This document shows, piece after piece, positions 4,817 to 37,086 of a DNA stretch of 47,828 nt (positions within the stretch are counted from its first letter, which is position 1; each line of letters opens with the position of its first letter). The translations under genes were made by a program, and so were the position numbers. Source of the DNA: a virus. Where the stretch lies: IMG/VR virus record IMGVR_UViG_3300044798_000079, positions 1 to 47,828 of that record. One strand, given 5' to 3'. The notes under the pieces are model-generated. The model saw only the letters and a list, made by a program, of their open reading frames with translations, had not been told where the DNA came from and searched no databases.

Positions 4817-4946
4817 CCATTTTCTCCTTTATTTTATCGATCATTTCCTGTCGAGCAGCAAGTCTCCTTACAGGATCATCGATATATTTATCCACCATCT
4901 GTAATCCTACTCCAACAACTGTAGCTATAGCTCCCACTGTTCCCAT
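4737..4946 (-). CDS. Small protein of the lysis cassette, possible inner-membrane partner
   Basis: 69 residues from the ATG at 4946, chosen because TGGAGGC lies 6 bases upstream; an upstream ATG at 5024 would overlap the holin. The N-terminus is moderately hydrophobic (GAIATVVGVGLQMV, about residues 4-17) and could insert in the membrane. The rest is charged and helical and may form a coiled coil. Its 3' end overlaps the lipoprotein gene. The role as an i-spanin-like partner is only an inference from this layout. Confidence 0.6.
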   Translation of the reverse strand: MGTVGAIATVVGVGLQMVDKYIDDPVRRLAARQEMIDKIKEKMDGILEAKEMEELDNLLLNFISALHNL

Positions 4947-4960
4947 CTGACGCCTCCAGT

Positions 4961-5140
4961 TTACTTCCCAACAATCAATGTACTCTTGCTGGTAAAGTAG
5001 GCAATCACCGCTCCGCCCACGCACACTGCAAAAGTCATCCAGTTAAAGGGTTGAGATGATAGATAGGCTCTTAATGGCTCCAGGATGAATAACAAAGCAC
5101 CTATCACATTCGTAATGATGTTAATTAATTTAGGGGTCAT
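4961..5140 (-). CDS. Two-TM holin (putative)
   Basis: 59 residues. Two hydrophobic segments, about residues 5-20 (INIITNVIGALLFIL region) and 34-50 (WMTFAVCVGGAVIAYF region), are separated by a short hydrophilic turn, with a short basic tail (SK..GK). This is the size and topology of small class II or III holins. A strong ribosome site (GGAGGTGA) lies 5 bases before the ATG. It sits in the lysis region between the phosphatase and the lipoprotein pair. Confidence 0.7.
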   Translation of the reverse strand: MTPKLINIITNVIGALLFILEPLRAYLSSQPFNWMTFAVCVGGAVIAYFTSKSTLIVGK

Positions 5141-5145
5141 TTATA

Positions 5146-5559
5146 TCACCTCCTCTCCGAAAGATTTTCAAGATAATTCCTAAATACTGGATTCACCAGT
5201 GCTCCTGGCCTTTTCTTTTGAATCAGTTTGACTGCCTCGATTCCACTCATTTCATCCAGCCAGAGGATACACCCATTAACCAAACCCGATCTGTTCCTTC
5301 CCATCGAGCAATGGACTAAAACTGTCTGACCTGCCTTCCACGCATTAAACCCATAGCGAGCCACGTTCCACAGATTTCTTTCATCTGGCAACCAAGGCAT
5401 ATCGAGAATATGCCAGTAGAGATAAGACTTGATATTCAATTCATATAGCGTATCAAATCCGCCTTCTAAATCAATGACTGTATCCATCTCTTTCACAGCA
5501 TTAGGATCATCTATCTTTGTACTCTGAAAGAGATTTGGTTTGATTTCAAAGATTTCCAT
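5146..5559 (-). CDS. Dual-specificity/tyrosine phosphatase-like protein
   Basis: Contains the complete cysteine-phosphatase signature HCSMGRNRSG (HC-x5-R), with the nucleophile Cys followed six residues later by Arg. The upstream strand-loop (DTVIDLEGG) and the aspartate loop (HILDMPWLPDE) are those of dual-specificity phosphatases and could supply the general acid. The start at 5559 (137 residues) is preferred, with AGGT 5 bases upstream and no overlap. An ATG at 5595 would abut its own GGAG. A phosphatase inside a phage lysis region is unusual. It might dephosphorylate a host protein or an RNA 5' end; the substrate cannot be told. Confidence 0.8.
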   Translation of the reverse strand: MEIFEIKPNLFQSTKIDDPNAVKEMDTVIDLEGGFDTLYELNIKSYLYWHILDMPWLPDERNLWNVARYGFNAWKAGQTVLVHCSMGRNRSGLVNGCILWLDEMSGIEAVKLIQKKRPGALVNPVFRNYLENLSERR

Positions 5560-20101: not shown

Positions 20102-20974
20102 TCACTGACATATCTCACATGGCACGGCAGGGATAAGGGCTATCTTCCCCATCAAATCACATTGCCAGATGATATCCCTCATCCTTGTCATAGACTTATG
20201 TAAAAATATATTGTTATTTTTTTTCTCAATTTCGTTATCCATTTCTACAATCCTTTGATAGTCTTCTGGATACTCACTCTTCATTAATTCATATTCATCA
20301 TCATGTTGTAATGGACACATGATACAGGATGACCTAGCAGGATCGGGCCAACCAAGAGAGCGGATAAGGAATAGACATTGATAACGAGAGAAATTCATAT
20401 CAATCAAAGGATAATGATTCGATATCCAATCAAGATTTGATTGTTTCTGCCTTTGACTTTCGTCTGTTGAAATGCCTATCCAACTCTTAGCCCTTTTAAC
20501 CCCGATTGAACGCAGGTATTGACGCATGAGTGCAACCTTCCATGTCCCACTGCACATCGTGTAGAGCCGTTGGATATTACCATCTTCTGTTTTTTTAAAA
20601 GCAGGGATAACAATCATCCCAGATTCATTGAACAATTTATTGTCGGGTGTATTGAGCGTTTTAAAATCAACTCCAACTTTATTACATGCCGGAATCAATA
20701 CCCTTCGAGCATAATCAAGCGTTCCGTGCTTTTCGTAACCAGTATCAACCATAAGAACTAAATCTGGCTTTGGTAATTCTCCCTTATATACCATCGCAAT
20801 CATGGCTGTTGATTGAACACCTCCACCGCAAGAGAGGACATTGAATTCCTTAACTCCGTCCATTCTAATTCGTTGTTTATCTTTGTTGCTGCAAGCACGA
20901 GAGCAATAATTAACAATAGATCTCTCCGTGTTAAATTCTTTAGAGCATTCTGGATTTAGGCATATTTTTTTCAT
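20102..20974 (-). CDS. PAPS-reductase-like PP-loop ATP pyrophosphatase with N-terminal zinc finger
   Basis: 290 residues from the ATG at 20974. The N-terminus (CLNPECSKEF ... YCSRACSNKD) is a four-Cys finger. Then comes the PP-loop SCGGGVQSTAM and the family pattern MVDTGYEKHGT. Later cysteines (SSCIMCP; CEICQ at the end) may bind a metal. Such proteins are frequent in phages and activate a substrate by adenylation. A sulfur-transfer or DNA/RNA-modification role, by analogy with DndC, is possible but unproven. It overlaps the HNH gene start-to-stop and precedes the terminase. Confidence 0.8.
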   Translation of the reverse strand: MKKICLNPECSKEFNTERSIVNYCSRACSNKDKQRIRMDGVKEFNVLSCGGGVQSTAMIAMVYKGELPKPDLVLMVDTGYEKHGTLDYARRVLIPACNKVGVDFKTLNTPDNKLFNESGMIVIPAFKKTEDGNIQRLYTMCSGTWKVALMRQYLRSIGVKRAKSWIGISTDESQRQKQSNLDWISNHYPLIDMNFSRYQCLFLIRSLGWPDPARSSCIMCPLQHDDEYELMKSEYPEDYQRIVEMDNEIEKKNNNIFLHKSMTRMRDIIWQCDLMGKIALIPAVPCEICQ

Positions 20975-21305
20975 CTGGTTCAATTAAATCCTGGTGAAAA
21001 TTAGGTGTATGACATGAAGCGCACACACCCTCGCCATTGTTTAGATCGATGTTCTTCCAGTTATTATCTTTGTGATGTGCTACTGTTGCGGGGGTGAGAA
21101 TTCCTTTTCTTAAACAGGACTGACACAGGGGATCACGATGTAGAATTGCTTCTCTCCAACGCTTGTGACCATTGGATAGATAGTGCTTTTGCTGTTCCTT
21201 TTCTTCAGGTATGTAGAGTCTAATATGCTTGGGTCTATGGGTAGGACACCACTTTCCTTCGGTGAGTAGTTCAGGACAACGAGGTGAAGCACATTGCTTA
21301 TACAA
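20940..21305 (-). CDS. HNH endonuclease (packaging-associated)
   Basis: 121 residues. The ββα-metal core reads CQSCLRKGILTPATVAHHKDNNW ... NGEGVCASCHTPNFH, with the HH pair and two CxxC metal knuckles. An extra N-terminal finger (C-x4-C ... CPTH) is present. The only full-length start is TTG at 21305. HNH proteins next to the large terminase act with it in cutting at cos in HK97-like phages, which fits here. Confidence 0.88.
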   Translation of the reverse strand: MYKQCASPRCPELLTEGKWCPTHRPKHIRLYIPEEKEQQKHYLSNGHKRWREAILHRDPLCQSCLRKGILTPATVAHHKDNNWKNIDLNNGEGVCASCHTPNFHQDLIEPDEKNMPKSRML

Positions 21306-21983: not shown

Positions 21984-22048
21984 TGATTATCCTTTCATGA
22001 GTAGAGGTTTAACCTAATCCACCCCCAAAGGTATAATATGTTAAGTTA

Positions 22049-22156
22049 CGCATGTTGACCCTGGGTTTCAAATGGGAACTCGCTCGCACAACCCGACTGG
22101 GTTTCAGTTCAACCTTCGCTCGCACCTATACCTTGGGTTTCATGGGGGTAATCGCT
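22049..22156 (-). repeat. TIGR array A: three 36-bp guide-RNA units
   Basis: Exactly 108 bp = 3 x 36. Read on the minus strand each unit is AGCGA - 9 variable - TGAAACCCA - 9 variable - TGCG, where TGCG|AGCGA joins consecutive units. Variable pairs in order: TTACCCCCA/AGGTATAGG, AGGTTGAAC/GTCGGGTTG, GTTCCCATT/GGGTCAACA. The conserved blocks are perfect in all three units apart from the outer edges, while the 9-mers are unrelated. This is the two-spacer architecture of TIGR arrays, whose RNAs are 36 nt. It starts 8 bp after the stop of the coiled-coil gene and is probably on the same transcript as array B and the tas gene. That these are guide RNAs is inferred from the architecture and the adjacent Tas-like gene. 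Confidence 0.88.
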
Positions 22157-22164
22157 TTATCCCA

Positions 22165-22815
22165 TTACAACGTAGCAGAACGTTGTATCGTGTTATTATG
22201 TTTATCAAATAGCTTCCTGATGCTGGTAACTGTTTGAGCTGTTACCTTGAGCTTTTCGATCTGCTCATTGAGTTCATTGATCTTTTTCATGGCTACCCGT
22301 AGAGCTTCTTTCGTCTTGTCATGTGTTGCCTTTTCATGTTCATACATGGCCTTCCAGTCGGTAATTTCCCTTTTTACCTTTGGCGTTTTCCGGTACTTCT
22401 CGATAATGGTCTCCATGTTTTTTCTCGACATTGGTGTTTTATGTGCAGCAGCCTCATGTTGAATTTCAGAAATAACTTTGTCAACCTTCATCCCTCCGCA
22501 CACCCTATCAATCTTTGCTACCATTCCTACTCCATATTCGATGGCATAAGTGGGGAACTTAGAAAATGCCCTTACATTTTCTCGATATGTTCCTTCCCGA
22601 ATAGTAAACCGATCTTCAAGGTAAGCCCAGAATGAGGACTTTTTGTAATGTGGATTTTCCTTGTAGCGGTAGCTTGTTCTCAAATATTCAAGGCATTCGT
22701 ACATTTCCTTCTGATGTTCCCTTGATAGAATGTGCAACTTCTCAATCTTGGTTTCGAGTTCTGTGATACTTACACCATCATACTTTGTTACTTTTTTTTC
22801 TTCTTGCTTTTCCAT
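22165..22815 (-). CDS. Coiled-coil protein encoded between the two TIGR arrays
   Basis: 216 residues. The N-terminal half has a helix-rich domain with SFWAYLEDRFTIREGTYRENVRAFSKFP, loosely like the HTH-type segment (EEYCKERWDLKRQRAYELIGA) of the plus-strand gene at 29126. Residues about 145-200 form a long charged coiled coil. A strong ribosome site (GAGGAGAACTC) follows the end of array B, and the stop is 8 bp before array A. Position makes it a candidate accessory of the TIGR locus, or simply a phage DNA-binding protein into whose flanks arrays were placed. No family is recognised with certainty. Confidence 0.75.
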   Translation of the reverse strand: MEKQEEKKVTKYDGVSITELETKIEKLHILSREHQKEMYECLEYLRTSYRYKENPHYKKSSFWAYLEDRFTIREGTYRENVRAFSKFPTYAIEYGVGMVAKIDRVCGGMKVDKVISEIQHEAAAHKTPMSRKNMETIIEKYRKTPKVKREITDWKAMYEHEKATHDKTKEALRVAMKKINELNEQIEKLKVTAQTVTSIRKLFDKHNNTIQRSATL

Positions 22816-22842: not shown

Positions 22843-23130
22843 CGCAAACTCATCATGGGTTTCATCTTTTCTCTCGCTCGCATCCCAATACTGGGTTTCA
22901 AACGTGGAGTCGCTCGCAGAATTTATTTAGGTTTCACGTCAACTTTCGCTCGCATTCTTTTATTGGGTTTCAAGAAGTCCGTCGCTCGCACACGTTCTTT
23001 GGATTTCAGCATTTCAATCGCTCATCTTTTACGGCCTCGCCTCAATATTGGGAGGGGACGCAAGGCGGTAATGGGTTTTATGGGCCTCCTCGCTCGCATT
23101 ATTCACCTGGATTTTAAACGGTTTTTCGCT
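22843..23130 (-). repeat. TIGR array B: eight 36-bp units, one degenerate
   Basis: 288 bp = 8 x 36 in strict register. From the 5' end (minus strand) units 1-2 (23130-23059) have loops TAAAATCCA and TAAAACCCA and lie inside the tas coding region. Unit 3 (23058-23023) is degenerate but exactly 36 bp, with TGAGGCGAG at the loop position; it contains the tas stop codon. Units 4-8 (23022-22843) have the edge TGCGAGCGA and the loop TGAAACCCA, with single changes in two loops. Variable pairs: AAAACCGTT/GGTGAATAA, GGAGGCCCA/TTACCGCCT, then TTGAAATGC/AAGAACGTG, CGGACTTCT/ATAAAAGAA, AAGTTGACG/AATAAATTC, CTCCACGTT/GTATTGGGA, GAGAAAAGA/TGATGAGTT. The geometry is edge 9, spacer 9, loop 9, spacer 9. Confidence 0.9.
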
Positions 23131-23973
23131 CTCTTCCTCCCAGTAAAAAGGCTGAATTATATTGGTATGTCCCATCAATGCTCCCGCATAGGGCTCTGAT
23201 ACTGGCTTCCCATCAAGAGTCCTTGCCACTGTCCACCAATGAGCAAGAAATATTTTAACCACTTCATTCTTTGCCGCATTATGGACATGACCCTTTGACC
23301 ATTCAGGATGATTCTTTGCATGCTTTGCCTTTCTCAAAAGAAGCAGGGCTTTATACGGATGATCATCTTGTTGCCTATTGAATTGATCTCCGATATGAAA
23401 ACCCAATGTTCTGCCAACTGTTGACCAATTAGACAAAACACCCTTTTTTCGCTTCGGCATAACGCCATCGATTGTATGCCTTCCCATATAAGCCCACCAT
23501 TTCGATATTGTTGGGAAGTCCTTATATTCGAGGCGATGCACCAAAAGACCCTCTTTTGCTACCTTCTTACAATCAACACAAGCCAATGTCTTTATTGTTT
23601 TCCCTGTTTCGGTTTGCTTTTCTTTTTTCTCCAATTTCCCTCCGCAATCTTTACAGACAGGGATAAATCGATAATAAAACAGGATGATCATCTGGGCCGC
23701 TATGAACGGGCCAATCCCTGATATTTTCTTTGCCCAGGTTTCCCATACATCCCACTGTTTCAATTCTTTTTCGATCTCTCTGGTAATCCGTCCCTTTACT
23801 GTTTCCAATCCTTCCGTCTTATCTTGTCCCTTTAAAAGTGTATCAAATTCCTCATTCCTTTCTTCCCCTGGCAGAGATTGAAGTCTCTGTTTCGTTGATG
23901 CAATTAATTGGGTTATACCTGCATACGTTCTCACCAGAAAATTCAAATACTTGATCCCTGCTTCGTTTGTCAT
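23029..23973 (-). CDS. tasA: Tas-like protein (TasA type; IS110/Nop-related, no nuclease)
   Basis: 314 residues, ribosome site AAAGGAGGAG 6 bases before the ATG. Residues 1-80 are a long helical segment. KISGIGPFIAAQMI (83-96) and DFPTISKWWAYMGR (152-165) are the helix-hairpin elements of the C-terminal domain of IS110-type transposases, which is structurally close to the Nop domain. A zinc-ribbon insert (Cys107, 110, 132, 135) separates them. Residues 175-255 continue as the basic helical core (SNWSTVGRTLGFHIGDQFNR; HVHNAAKNEVVKIFLAHWW). There is no DEDD/RuvC or HNH domain. With two 36-bp dual-spacer arrays alongside, the best reading is the guide-RNA-binding Tas protein of a TIGR system, TasA type. 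The last 33 residues (282-314) are translated from array units 1-3. An IS110 transposase is the likely automatic annotation but lacks catalytic domain and element ends. Confidence 0.82.
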   Translation of the reverse strand: MTNEAGIKYLNFLVRTYAGITQLIASTKQRLQSLPGEERNEEFDTLLKGQDKTEGLETVKGRITREIEKELKQWDVWETWAKKISGIGPFIAAQMIILFYYRFIPVCKDCGGKLEKKEKQTETGKTIKTLACVDCKKVAKEGLLVHRLEYKDFPTISKWWAYMGRHTIDGVMPKRKKGVLSNWSTVGRTLGFHIGDQFNRQQDDHPYKALLLLRKAKHAKNHPEWSKGHVHNAAKNEVVKIFLAHWWTVARTLDGKPVSEPYAGALMGHTNIIQPFYWEEESEKPFKIQVNNASEEAHKTHYRLASPPNIEARP

Positions 23974-35988: not shown

Positions 35989-36081
35989 GGATCTGGAGAA
36001 ATTTCTATGATGATTAACCCTTTGACATCTTCTTTTGAACATGATACTTTTCCCTTCATTCCATTCTGGAGGAGGGACGCC

Positions 36082-37086
36082 ATGAAGGGGGGATACTATC
36101 TGCCGAAGGGGAGGCAAAGATATCGTGTATGGGTCAATTATCGGGGCAAGAAGTTACAAATCAATAAAGACCGCAATGGTAAGCCTTTTTATCATCCCAA
36201 TCAATGTGAGGACTTCCTTGAAGAGGTGGCCATTGAGATCCGGAGAGGTAGATTTGACCCTTCCATGTGGGGTAAGAATAAACCCAACCTTTTTGAAAGG
36301 GCATGGATCACCTATTCCACAAATAATCCCTGCAAGGAAGGGACAGATTATAATAGGGAGATGATCTGTAAATACTATCTTTTGCCTTATTTCAAGGGAA
36401 AATTCCTATCAGAGATTACGGAACTATCAATCAATGAATGGTGGGCTCAGCTACCGGAAAAGAAACCATCCTACAAAAGATTGATAAGGGCAAGACTGAG
36501 GGCCTTTTTAAACTACAACAAGAAGGTGCTCCCCGAAGAAATCACCATGCCCAAGGTCAAAGTGCCGAGACGAGATCAACCCTGGCTGTCCCGTGAAGAA
36601 CAGGAAAAGGTCTTGAATCATTTAGGTAAGGAAAAGGATATTATCAGATTTATGATGATTTATGGTTGCCGATCCTCTGAGGCTTGCAATCTTAGAAAGA
36701 CAGACATTGACTTTGAGAAAAAACTTATCACATTCAGGGACCGGAAAAACGAAATGGATAATACCCTTCCCTTGCTACCCGAAGCGGAGGCCATAATCAA
36801 AGGCTCCCATAGGGTAGAAAGCCTTGAATACGTATTCTGCGATGACAGAGGAGAGAAGTTTAATCGGTATGATGTCTACGGGGCATGGAAGAAAGCCAAC
36901 CGGCTATCCGGTGTCAAGATGGTAAGCCTCAAGAATGGAACTCGCCATTCCCTGGCCTCACAACTAAGCAATCGGGGAACATCCCTTTCGGATATTGCAA
37001 GGATACTGGGCAACACAGAGAGGGTGGTTGATGAGAATTATAGGAGGGTCAATATCCAGAGGATTGAGGAGGTGTTAGGGAGATGA
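36082..37086 (+). CDS. int: Tyrosine recombinase integrase
   Basis: 334 residues from ATG 36082 (GGAGGAGGGA upstream). An earlier in-frame ATG at 36007 would add 25 residues. A core-binding domain is at about 70-150. The catalytic set: Arg197 (YGCRSSEACNL), Lys222 (DRKNEMDNTLPL), Arg288-His289 (NGTRHSLAS), Asn311 in place of the usual His/Trp, and Tyr320 (DENYRRV). The usual first His of H-x-x-R is not obvious. It integrates and excises the phage genome. attP is probably in or near the non-coding region after 37490. Confidence 0.9.
   Translation: MKGGYYLPKGRQRYRVWVNYRGKKLQINKDRNGKPFYHPNQCEDFLEEVAIEIRRGRFDPSMWGKNKPNLFERAWITYSTNNPCKEGTDYNREMICKYYLLPYFKGKFLSEITELSINEWWAQLPEKKPSYKRLIRARLRAFLNYNKKVLPEEITMPKVKVPRRDQPWLSREEQEKVLNHLGKEKDIIRFMMIYGCRSSEACNLRKTDIDFEKKLITFRDRKNEMDNTLPLLPEAEAIIKGSHRVESLEYVFCDDRGEKFNRYDVYGAWKKANRLSGVKMVSLKNGTRHSLASQLSNRGTSLSDIARILGNTERVVDENYRRVNIQRIEEVLGR

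What the first reader, a model, noticed from the sequence alone, without database searches (positions are those of the whole stretch)
22843..23130. TIGR guide-RNA array (8 x 36 bp) in a phage early region
The sequence has a strictly periodic array: TGCGAGCGA, 9 variable bases, TGAAACCCA, 9 variable bases, repeated every 36 bp for 288 bp with no slip. The two alternating conserved blocks and two unrelated 9-base spacers per unit are not CRISPR (one repeat, about 30-base spacers) but match TIGR arrays, described as processed into 36-nt tigRNAs with two guides. A Tas-like gene lies at the 5' end on the same strand. This is likely a working RNA-guided DNA-binding system of the phage.
Basis: partly seen in the sequence, partly recalled or inferred. 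Interest (0 to 1): 0.96.

Follow-up and report, generated by a model that had tools for sequence, protein, structure and literature searches.

The report
Phage dual-guide RNA array with TasA
A temperate phage carries a TIGR-Tas system, a recently described RNA-guided DNA-binding system with two short guides per RNA, in its nuclease-free (TasA) form; it is a genuine new member of a known kind, with an odd layout in which the first guides lie inside the end of the tas gene.

Summary
The array is real and is a TIGR array. On the minus strand, edge (TGCGAGCGA), 9 variable bases, loop (TGAAACCCA) and 9 variable bases repeat every 36 nt. It is two sub-arrays (2 and 5 guide units) kept in phase by one decayed unit, and a third array of 3 units was missed at 22044-22160. 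The neighbouring gene (23029-23973, minus) is a Tas protein. Its profile matches solved TasR at E 4e-52, and its model superposes on TasR at Z 22 but lacks the nuclease domain, so it is TasA. A conserved helix-turn-helix/coiled-coil gene between the arrays is a probable TasParB. In 376 units from 31 loci the repeats are conserved and the box C/D pairs covary, while spacers are essentially all different. Two phages 87-89% identical in both flanking genes share only one recognisable guide unit. The tas reading frame runs through the first units here and in several relatives (at least four changes on the tree), at one unit per 12 codons. That looks tolerated rather than selected. No target was found. 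RNA processing and DNA binding are inferred from TasR, TasH and TasA and were not tested.

The parts
23029..23973 (-). tasA gene, 314 aa; Nop-domain Tas protein without nuclease domain; residues ~280-314 are encoded by TIGR array I and the decayed unit
   Evidence: PHROG 4285 E 1.6e-24; profile vs TasR 9mty E 3.7e-52 and TasH 3.6e-23; AF2 pLDDT 85, tail below 50; Foldseek 4e-10 and VIA Z 22.2 to TasR
23058..23134 (-). TIGR array I: 2 units, inside the 3' end of tasA, in frame (12 codons per unit); both loop repeats have box D TA instead of TG
23027..23062 (-). decayed 36-nt unit between arrays I and II, carrying the tasA stop codon (23029-23031); shared in place with relatives L006 and L005
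22838..23026 (-). TIGR array II: 5 intact guide units between tasA and gene 2, starting with a 5'-truncated edge (GATGAGCGA) and ending with a 3'-truncated edge (TGCGAACTT) just before the ribosome-binding site of gene 2
22165..22815 (-). gene 2, 216 aa, helical helix-turn-helix region plus C-terminal coiled coil; probable TasParB
   Evidence: homologue beside tas in 33 of 37 near loci; AF2 pLDDT 92.6; VIA best match ParB 6sdk Z 6.3 over 98 residues, SopB 3mkz Z 4.0
22044..22160 (-).

Best explanation
A phage-borne TIGR-TasA system in a tasA - array - tasParB-like - array operon. Shown by sequence: three arrays of one repeat type, a Tas protein without nuclease, a ParB-like partner, conserved repeats with hypervariable guides. 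Inferred from the characterised TasR, TasH and TasA: the operon transcript is cut in the middle of each edge repeat by a host RNase, with TasA required, giving 36-nt tigRNAs; a TasA dimer holds one tigRNA through box C/D contacts; spacer A pairs with one strand and spacer B with the other at an 18-20 bp site, opening and sharply bending the DNA without cutting it. The most likely use is to block transcription, replication or maintenance of competing mobile elements at the guided site, possibly with the ParB-like protein bridging or spreading from it. The biological role is the least certain step (about 40%).
For: Repeat architecture and truncated end edges. Tas identity by profile, Foldseek and VIA, where model residues 4-279 align with TasR 110-322, i.e. 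without the RuvC part. Covariation in 376 units: edge pair 2-7 GC 357, GT 10, AT 5; edge pair 3-6 CG 341, TA 20; loop pair 2-7 GC 342 with a TA form in 7 units (the consensus of L028). Pairing of the two edge halves of one predicted tigRNA (98.9%) exceeds pairing within one repeat copy (90%). Spacers diverse across relatives, and nearly all different between L034 and L036, whose tas and gene 2 are 89% and 87% identical. Gene 2 conserved beside tas. Published mechanism: PMC12045711.
Against: No target was found in the phage itself, in about 1.4 Mb of relatives, or coherently in the viral collection. The edge repeat ends CGA while the loop ends CCA, although the paper says these motifs almost always covary between the two. 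There is no clear terminator after the arrays. Expression and RNA processing are untested. The ParB resemblance of gene 2 is weak (Z 6.3).
Confidence: 0.9

Rival explanations
1. The repeat is a protein-coding tandem repeat: the units are 12-codon repeats of the Tas tail, and the intergenic copies are remnants.
For: In this phage and several relatives the tas frame runs through 1-5 units without a stop, always in the same frame.
Against: 141 of 376 units have a stop in that frame, 355 in frame 0 and 94 in frame 2. Most arrays are intergenic. The tail is predicted disordered (pLDDT below 50). In four relatives the TGA of the first loop repeat is itself the tas stop. Run lengths (mean about 2.3 units) are near what a 39% stop rate per unit gives (about 1.6). 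Covarying pairs fit an RNA.
Confidence: 0.03
2. The same TIGR-TasA machinery, used to regulate the phage's own or its host's genes rather than to act on rivals.
For: TasA lacks a nuclease, the system sits in a temperate phage operon (integrase at 36007-37086), and gene 2 looks like a DNA-binding protein.
Against: No excess of matches in the phage's own DNA over swapped spacer pairs. Spacers turn over fast, which is unlike fixed regulatory targets. Host genomes were hardly testable (one search covers six MAGs; one search is not informative).
Confidence: 0.25
3. CRISPR or another single-repeat array.
For: Periodic repeats with variable spacers.
Against: Two alternating 9-nt repeats, 9-nt spacers, no Cas proteins nearby, and a Tas protein alongside.
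Confidence: 0.01
4. A decaying, no longer functional TIGR locus.
For: One decayed unit, and both in-ORF loop repeats with a broken box D pair.
Against: Eight of ten units are intact, tasA and gene 2 are full-length and conserved, and the Tas core is confidently modelled.
Confidence: 0.07

Closest known systems
TIGR-TasA dual-repeat systems, including those with tasParB (Faure et al. 2025, PMC12045711)
   Same: Alternating edge and loop repeats with 9-nt spacers, 36-nt unit, truncated end edges, solo Nop-domain Tas protein, arrays upstream, downstream and between tasA and a ParB-like gene
   Different: Repeats of 9 nt rather than the 10 nt reported for tasParB loci; edge box C is CGA; the first units lie inside the tas reading frame, which the main text of the paper does not mention; no terminator seen; the gene 2 model is all-helical, with no counterpart of the ParB CTPase domain
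TasR (PDB 9mty) and TasH (9vzx, 9w02-9w04, 21kl)
   Same: Nop-domain core and tigRNA type (profile E 3.7e-52 and 3.6e-23, VIA Z 22.2 and 21.6)
   Different: No N-terminal RuvC or HNH nuclease here
IS110 family transposases (IS621, ISCro4)
   Same: Related Nop-like RNA-binding fold (VIA Z about 15)
   Different: No DEDD catalytic domain here, weak sequence similarity (E 0.06-0.07), arrays instead of a single bridge RNA

Membership tests
TIGR-Tas (dual-repeat type) | Two distinct alternating 8-12 nt repeats with ~9-nt variable spacers | tested here: met
   9-nt edge and loop, 9-nt spacers, 10 units in three arrays; chance expectation 0.04 vs 7 pattern hits
[quoted passage not shown]
   AGAGAGCGA, GATGAGCGA and ATAAAGCGA at starts; TGCGTCCCC, TGCGAACTT and TGCGTAACT at ends
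TIGR-Tas (dual-repeat type) | Adjacent Nop-domain protein of the Tas family | tested here: met
TIGR-Tas (dual-repeat type) | Box D (UG) and box C (CCA) in both repeats, with the supporting base pairs kept or covarying | tested here: met
   Pairs kept in 94-99% of 376 units, with compensatory forms; edge box C is CGA in this subclade, so the motif itself is only partly kept
TIGR-Tas (dual-repeat type) | Predicted rho-independent terminator after the array (reported as typical, not defining) | tested here: inconclusive
   Simple scan shows none at the minus-strand array ends; array II is followed by the ribosome-binding site of gene 2
TIGR-Tas (dual-repeat type) | Processing into Tas-bound 36-nt tigRNAs | not testable with these tools
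   Needs RNA sequencing
TIGR-Tas (dual-repeat type) | tigRNA-guided DNA binding with spacers A and B on opposite strands | not testable with these tools
   No natural target found
TasA subtype | Solo Nop protein without HNH or RuvC domain | tested here: met
   Model residues 4-279 cover TasR 110-322 only; no nuclease family in Pfam
TasParB | ParB-like protein operonic with tasA, dimerising by its C-terminus | tested here: inconclusive
   Operonic and conserved; best fold match ParB Z 6.3, below a safe level; C-terminal long helix
CRISPR array | One repeat of about 25-36 nt with spacers of similar size | tested here: not met
   Two 9-nt repeats, 9-nt spacers
IS110 transposase | N-terminal DEDD (RuvC-like) catalytic domain | tested here: not met
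   Model residues 1-279 align with IS621/ISCro4 chains only from residue ~122 on

The most novel reading that the evidence does not exclude
Guide maturation doubles as feedback on the operon. TIGR units fill each gap of the tasA - tasParB mRNA, and the first lie inside the tasA reading frame, so cutting out tigRNAs would remove the tasA stop codon or split the mRNA, tying TasA supply to guide processing.
Probability: 0.12. Interest if true: 0.7.

Novelty: new member of a known kind. Interest (0 to 1): 0.45.

Why it matters
TasA is described as the commonest TIGR effector, and what it does in nature is unknown. This locus and its relatives (about 37 near loci, 376 guide units) show a coherent phage lineage in which guides turn over between otherwise similar phages. 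That gives material for finding how guides are gained and what they aim at. The in-ORF units and the ParB-like partner are concrete handles for experiments.

Tried and rejected
Self-targeting: best matches of guide pairs in their own loci equal those of swapped pairs in four geometries. Targets among relatives: a 0.65 Mb pool and a 1.49 Mb pool including whole contigs. In the geometry inferred from the paper (A + 0-2 bp + rc(B)) there were 9 matches at 17/18 against 3 for one set of swapped pairs, mostly AT-rich and four from one unit; no 18/18. Two 18/18 events in other geometries (L083 guide in L051/L052; L085 guide in L058) are noted but not trusted. Exact scans of the viral collection for two window guides gave 3 and 7 hits against 2 for a swapped control, in unrelated phages. 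The BLAST search of 155 genomes of the order of the Smithella record had no positive control and shows nothing. Spacer A/B similarity within or between neighbouring units: none beyond control. Selection for an open frame in the in-ORF units: not supported. Foldseek found no match for gene 2. Rfam: no match at gathering thresholds. An exact-pattern scan for more arrays of this type returned only known relatives. TRF missed the array.

Full report
What is there. The window is a complete virus-collection record of 47,828 bases from a temperate tailed phage: terminase, portal, head protease, major head protein and tail J protein on the minus strand, integrase on the plus strand. On the minus strand, between replication-type genes and the terminase, lies the reported array. 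Read in that direction the unit is TGCGAGCGA (edge), 9 variable bases, TGAAACCCA (loop), 9 variable bases, 36 nt in all. Seven two-block matches with at most three mismatches occur in the window, against a mean of 0.04 in 100 shuffles.

Corrections to the observation. The stretch is not eight intact units. From the 5' end: two units (array I, 23134-23058) whose loops read TAAAATCCA and TAAAACCCA; one decayed unit (23062-23027); five intact units (array II, 23026-22838). After a 216-aa gene there is a further three-unit array (array III, 22160-22044) with the same repeats. Each array starts with an edge that keeps only its 3' half and ends with one that keeps only its 5' half, as described for TIGR arrays (PMC12045711).

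The protein. The ORF at 23973-23029 gives no Pfam family but matches PHROG 4285, annotated transposase. A profile of 38 sequences (the window's and 37 relatives) matches the solved TasR sequence (9mty) at 3.7e-52 and TasH (21kl) at 3.6e-23, with IS621 and ISCro4 far weaker (0.07 and 0.06). The AlphaFold2 model (pLDDT 85) is confident over the Nop core and below 50 over most of 280-305. Foldseek ranks TasR and TasH first. VIA gives Z 22.2 to TasR over 200 residues, aligning model residues 4-279 with TasR 110-322. TasR's N-terminal RuvC part has no counterpart, so this is TasA.

The RNA. In 376 units from 31 loci the edge pair 2-7 is standard in 98.9% when the two half-edges of one predicted tigRNA are paired (GC 357, GT 10, AT 5), and the edge pair 3-6 in 96.8% (CG 341, TA 20, the TA form being the consensus in L033 and L083). 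The loop pair 2-7 is standard in 94%, including a T-A form that is the consensus of L028. Pairing inside one repeat copy is lower (90%), because the truncated end edges keep only the half needed by their own tigRNA. This is what the published TasR structure and processing site predict. The edge ends CGA while the loop ends CCA in the window's subclade, a departure from the near-universal agreement stated in the paper.

Relatives and turnover. Scans gave tas relatives in viral contigs and a few genome records: Methanoperedens, Smithella, Desulfobacula, Desulfobacterales, Deltaproteobacteria and others. Of 37 near loci (the window included), 33 carry a homologue of the 216-aa gene in the fetched stretch. 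Among cross-locus pairs of units the best match is 15 of 18 guide bases, one pair between L034 and L036; the rest follow a chance-like distribution. L034 and L036 are 89% identical across tas and 87% across gene 2, with the array start in the same place and the same end sequence, but their guides are otherwise different. L069 and L072, more distant relatives, are 99% identical over 4,664 bases up to the end of tas and then diverge in the array region. L010, L011 and L014 are near-identical phages with one base difference in their arrays.

Gene 2. It is modelled at pLDDT 92.6 as a helical bundle with a helix-turn-helix-like middle and a 62-residue C-terminal helix. Foldseek finds nothing. VIA's top row is ParB (Z 6.3, 98 residues) and another is SopB (Z 4.0). 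With its place beside tasA and between arrays this fits the published tasParB operons, but the fold evidence alone is weak.

Arrays inside the tas frame. In the window, L004, L005, L006, L013, L024, L025 and L032 the tas reading frame continues into the array, always in the frame that reads T-GCG-AGC-GA. In L007, L008, L021 and L033 the TGA of the first loop is the tas stop. On the tree the overlap needs five changes, at least four forced by well supported branches. Outside the ORFs 140 of 361 units carry a stop in this frame, so runs of one to five open units are about what chance gives, and the tail is predicted disordered. I read the overlap as tolerated. It does mean that ribosomes run through the first guides and that each added unit adds exactly 12 residues.

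Targets. From the paper's cut pattern (8-nt 3' overhangs, cleavage 5' to the nucleotide paired with spacer base 5) I inferred the target as spacer A followed by the reverse complement of spacer B with 0-2 bp between. The paper also says '3' to' in one place, so all four orientations were tested. True pairs did no better than swapped pairs in own loci or in 1.49 Mb of related DNA, and exact scans of the viral collection gave scattered hits near control level. The natural target remains unknown.

Judgement. TIGR-TasA membership is well supported on each defining feature testable by sequence and structure. Function (36-nt RNAs, two-strand DNA binding, no cleavage) is inferred from characterised relatives. 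In the open-access library searched, the TIGR-Tas papers are the 2025 discovery paper and reviews or passing mentions. Unpublished or subscription work could not be checked, nor the paper's supplementary loci.

Noticed in passing
L034 and L036, about 4818-5290: Two phages with tas and tasParB-like genes 87-89% identical have almost wholly different guides between matching array boundaries; one unit is recognisably shared (TTGCTAGCG/TCGCTGCCG vs TTGCTCGCG/TCGCTAACG).
   Followed up: partly
L069, L072, L070 from about 4660: More distant tas phages, 99% identical up to the tas stop (L069/L072), diverge right there: L069 has about 470 extra bases before its array, and the array contents differ.
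   Followed up: partly
L083: A contig binned as Candidatus Methanoperedens (archaeon) carries a tas 80% identical to the window's amid relatives from bacteria-linked phages; mis-binning or an unusual host.
   Followed up: no
L012:1145-1965: The tas gene is split into two reading frames (68 aa and 185 aa from the first start codons) with the middle part missing or shifted; disrupted copy or assembly error.
   Followed up: no
L006:475-766: A separate 36-bp-periodic tandem repeat that encodes a protein repeat (SIEAGG...), not a TIGR array.
   Followed up: no
L051:2459, L052:1831, L061:2819: rc(B)-1 bp-A of one L083 guide unit (18/18, or 17/18 in L061) in three related contigs that carry their own tas; orientation opposite to the inferred target geometry, may be chance.
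   Followed up: partly
L038, L039:4880-5520: Near tas relatives without recognisable edge/loop motifs; the region after tas has other direct repeats, so possibly another array type.
   Followed up: no
window 20102-20983: PAPS-reductase-like gene (PHROG 424) next to an HNH gene and the terminase.
   Followed up: no
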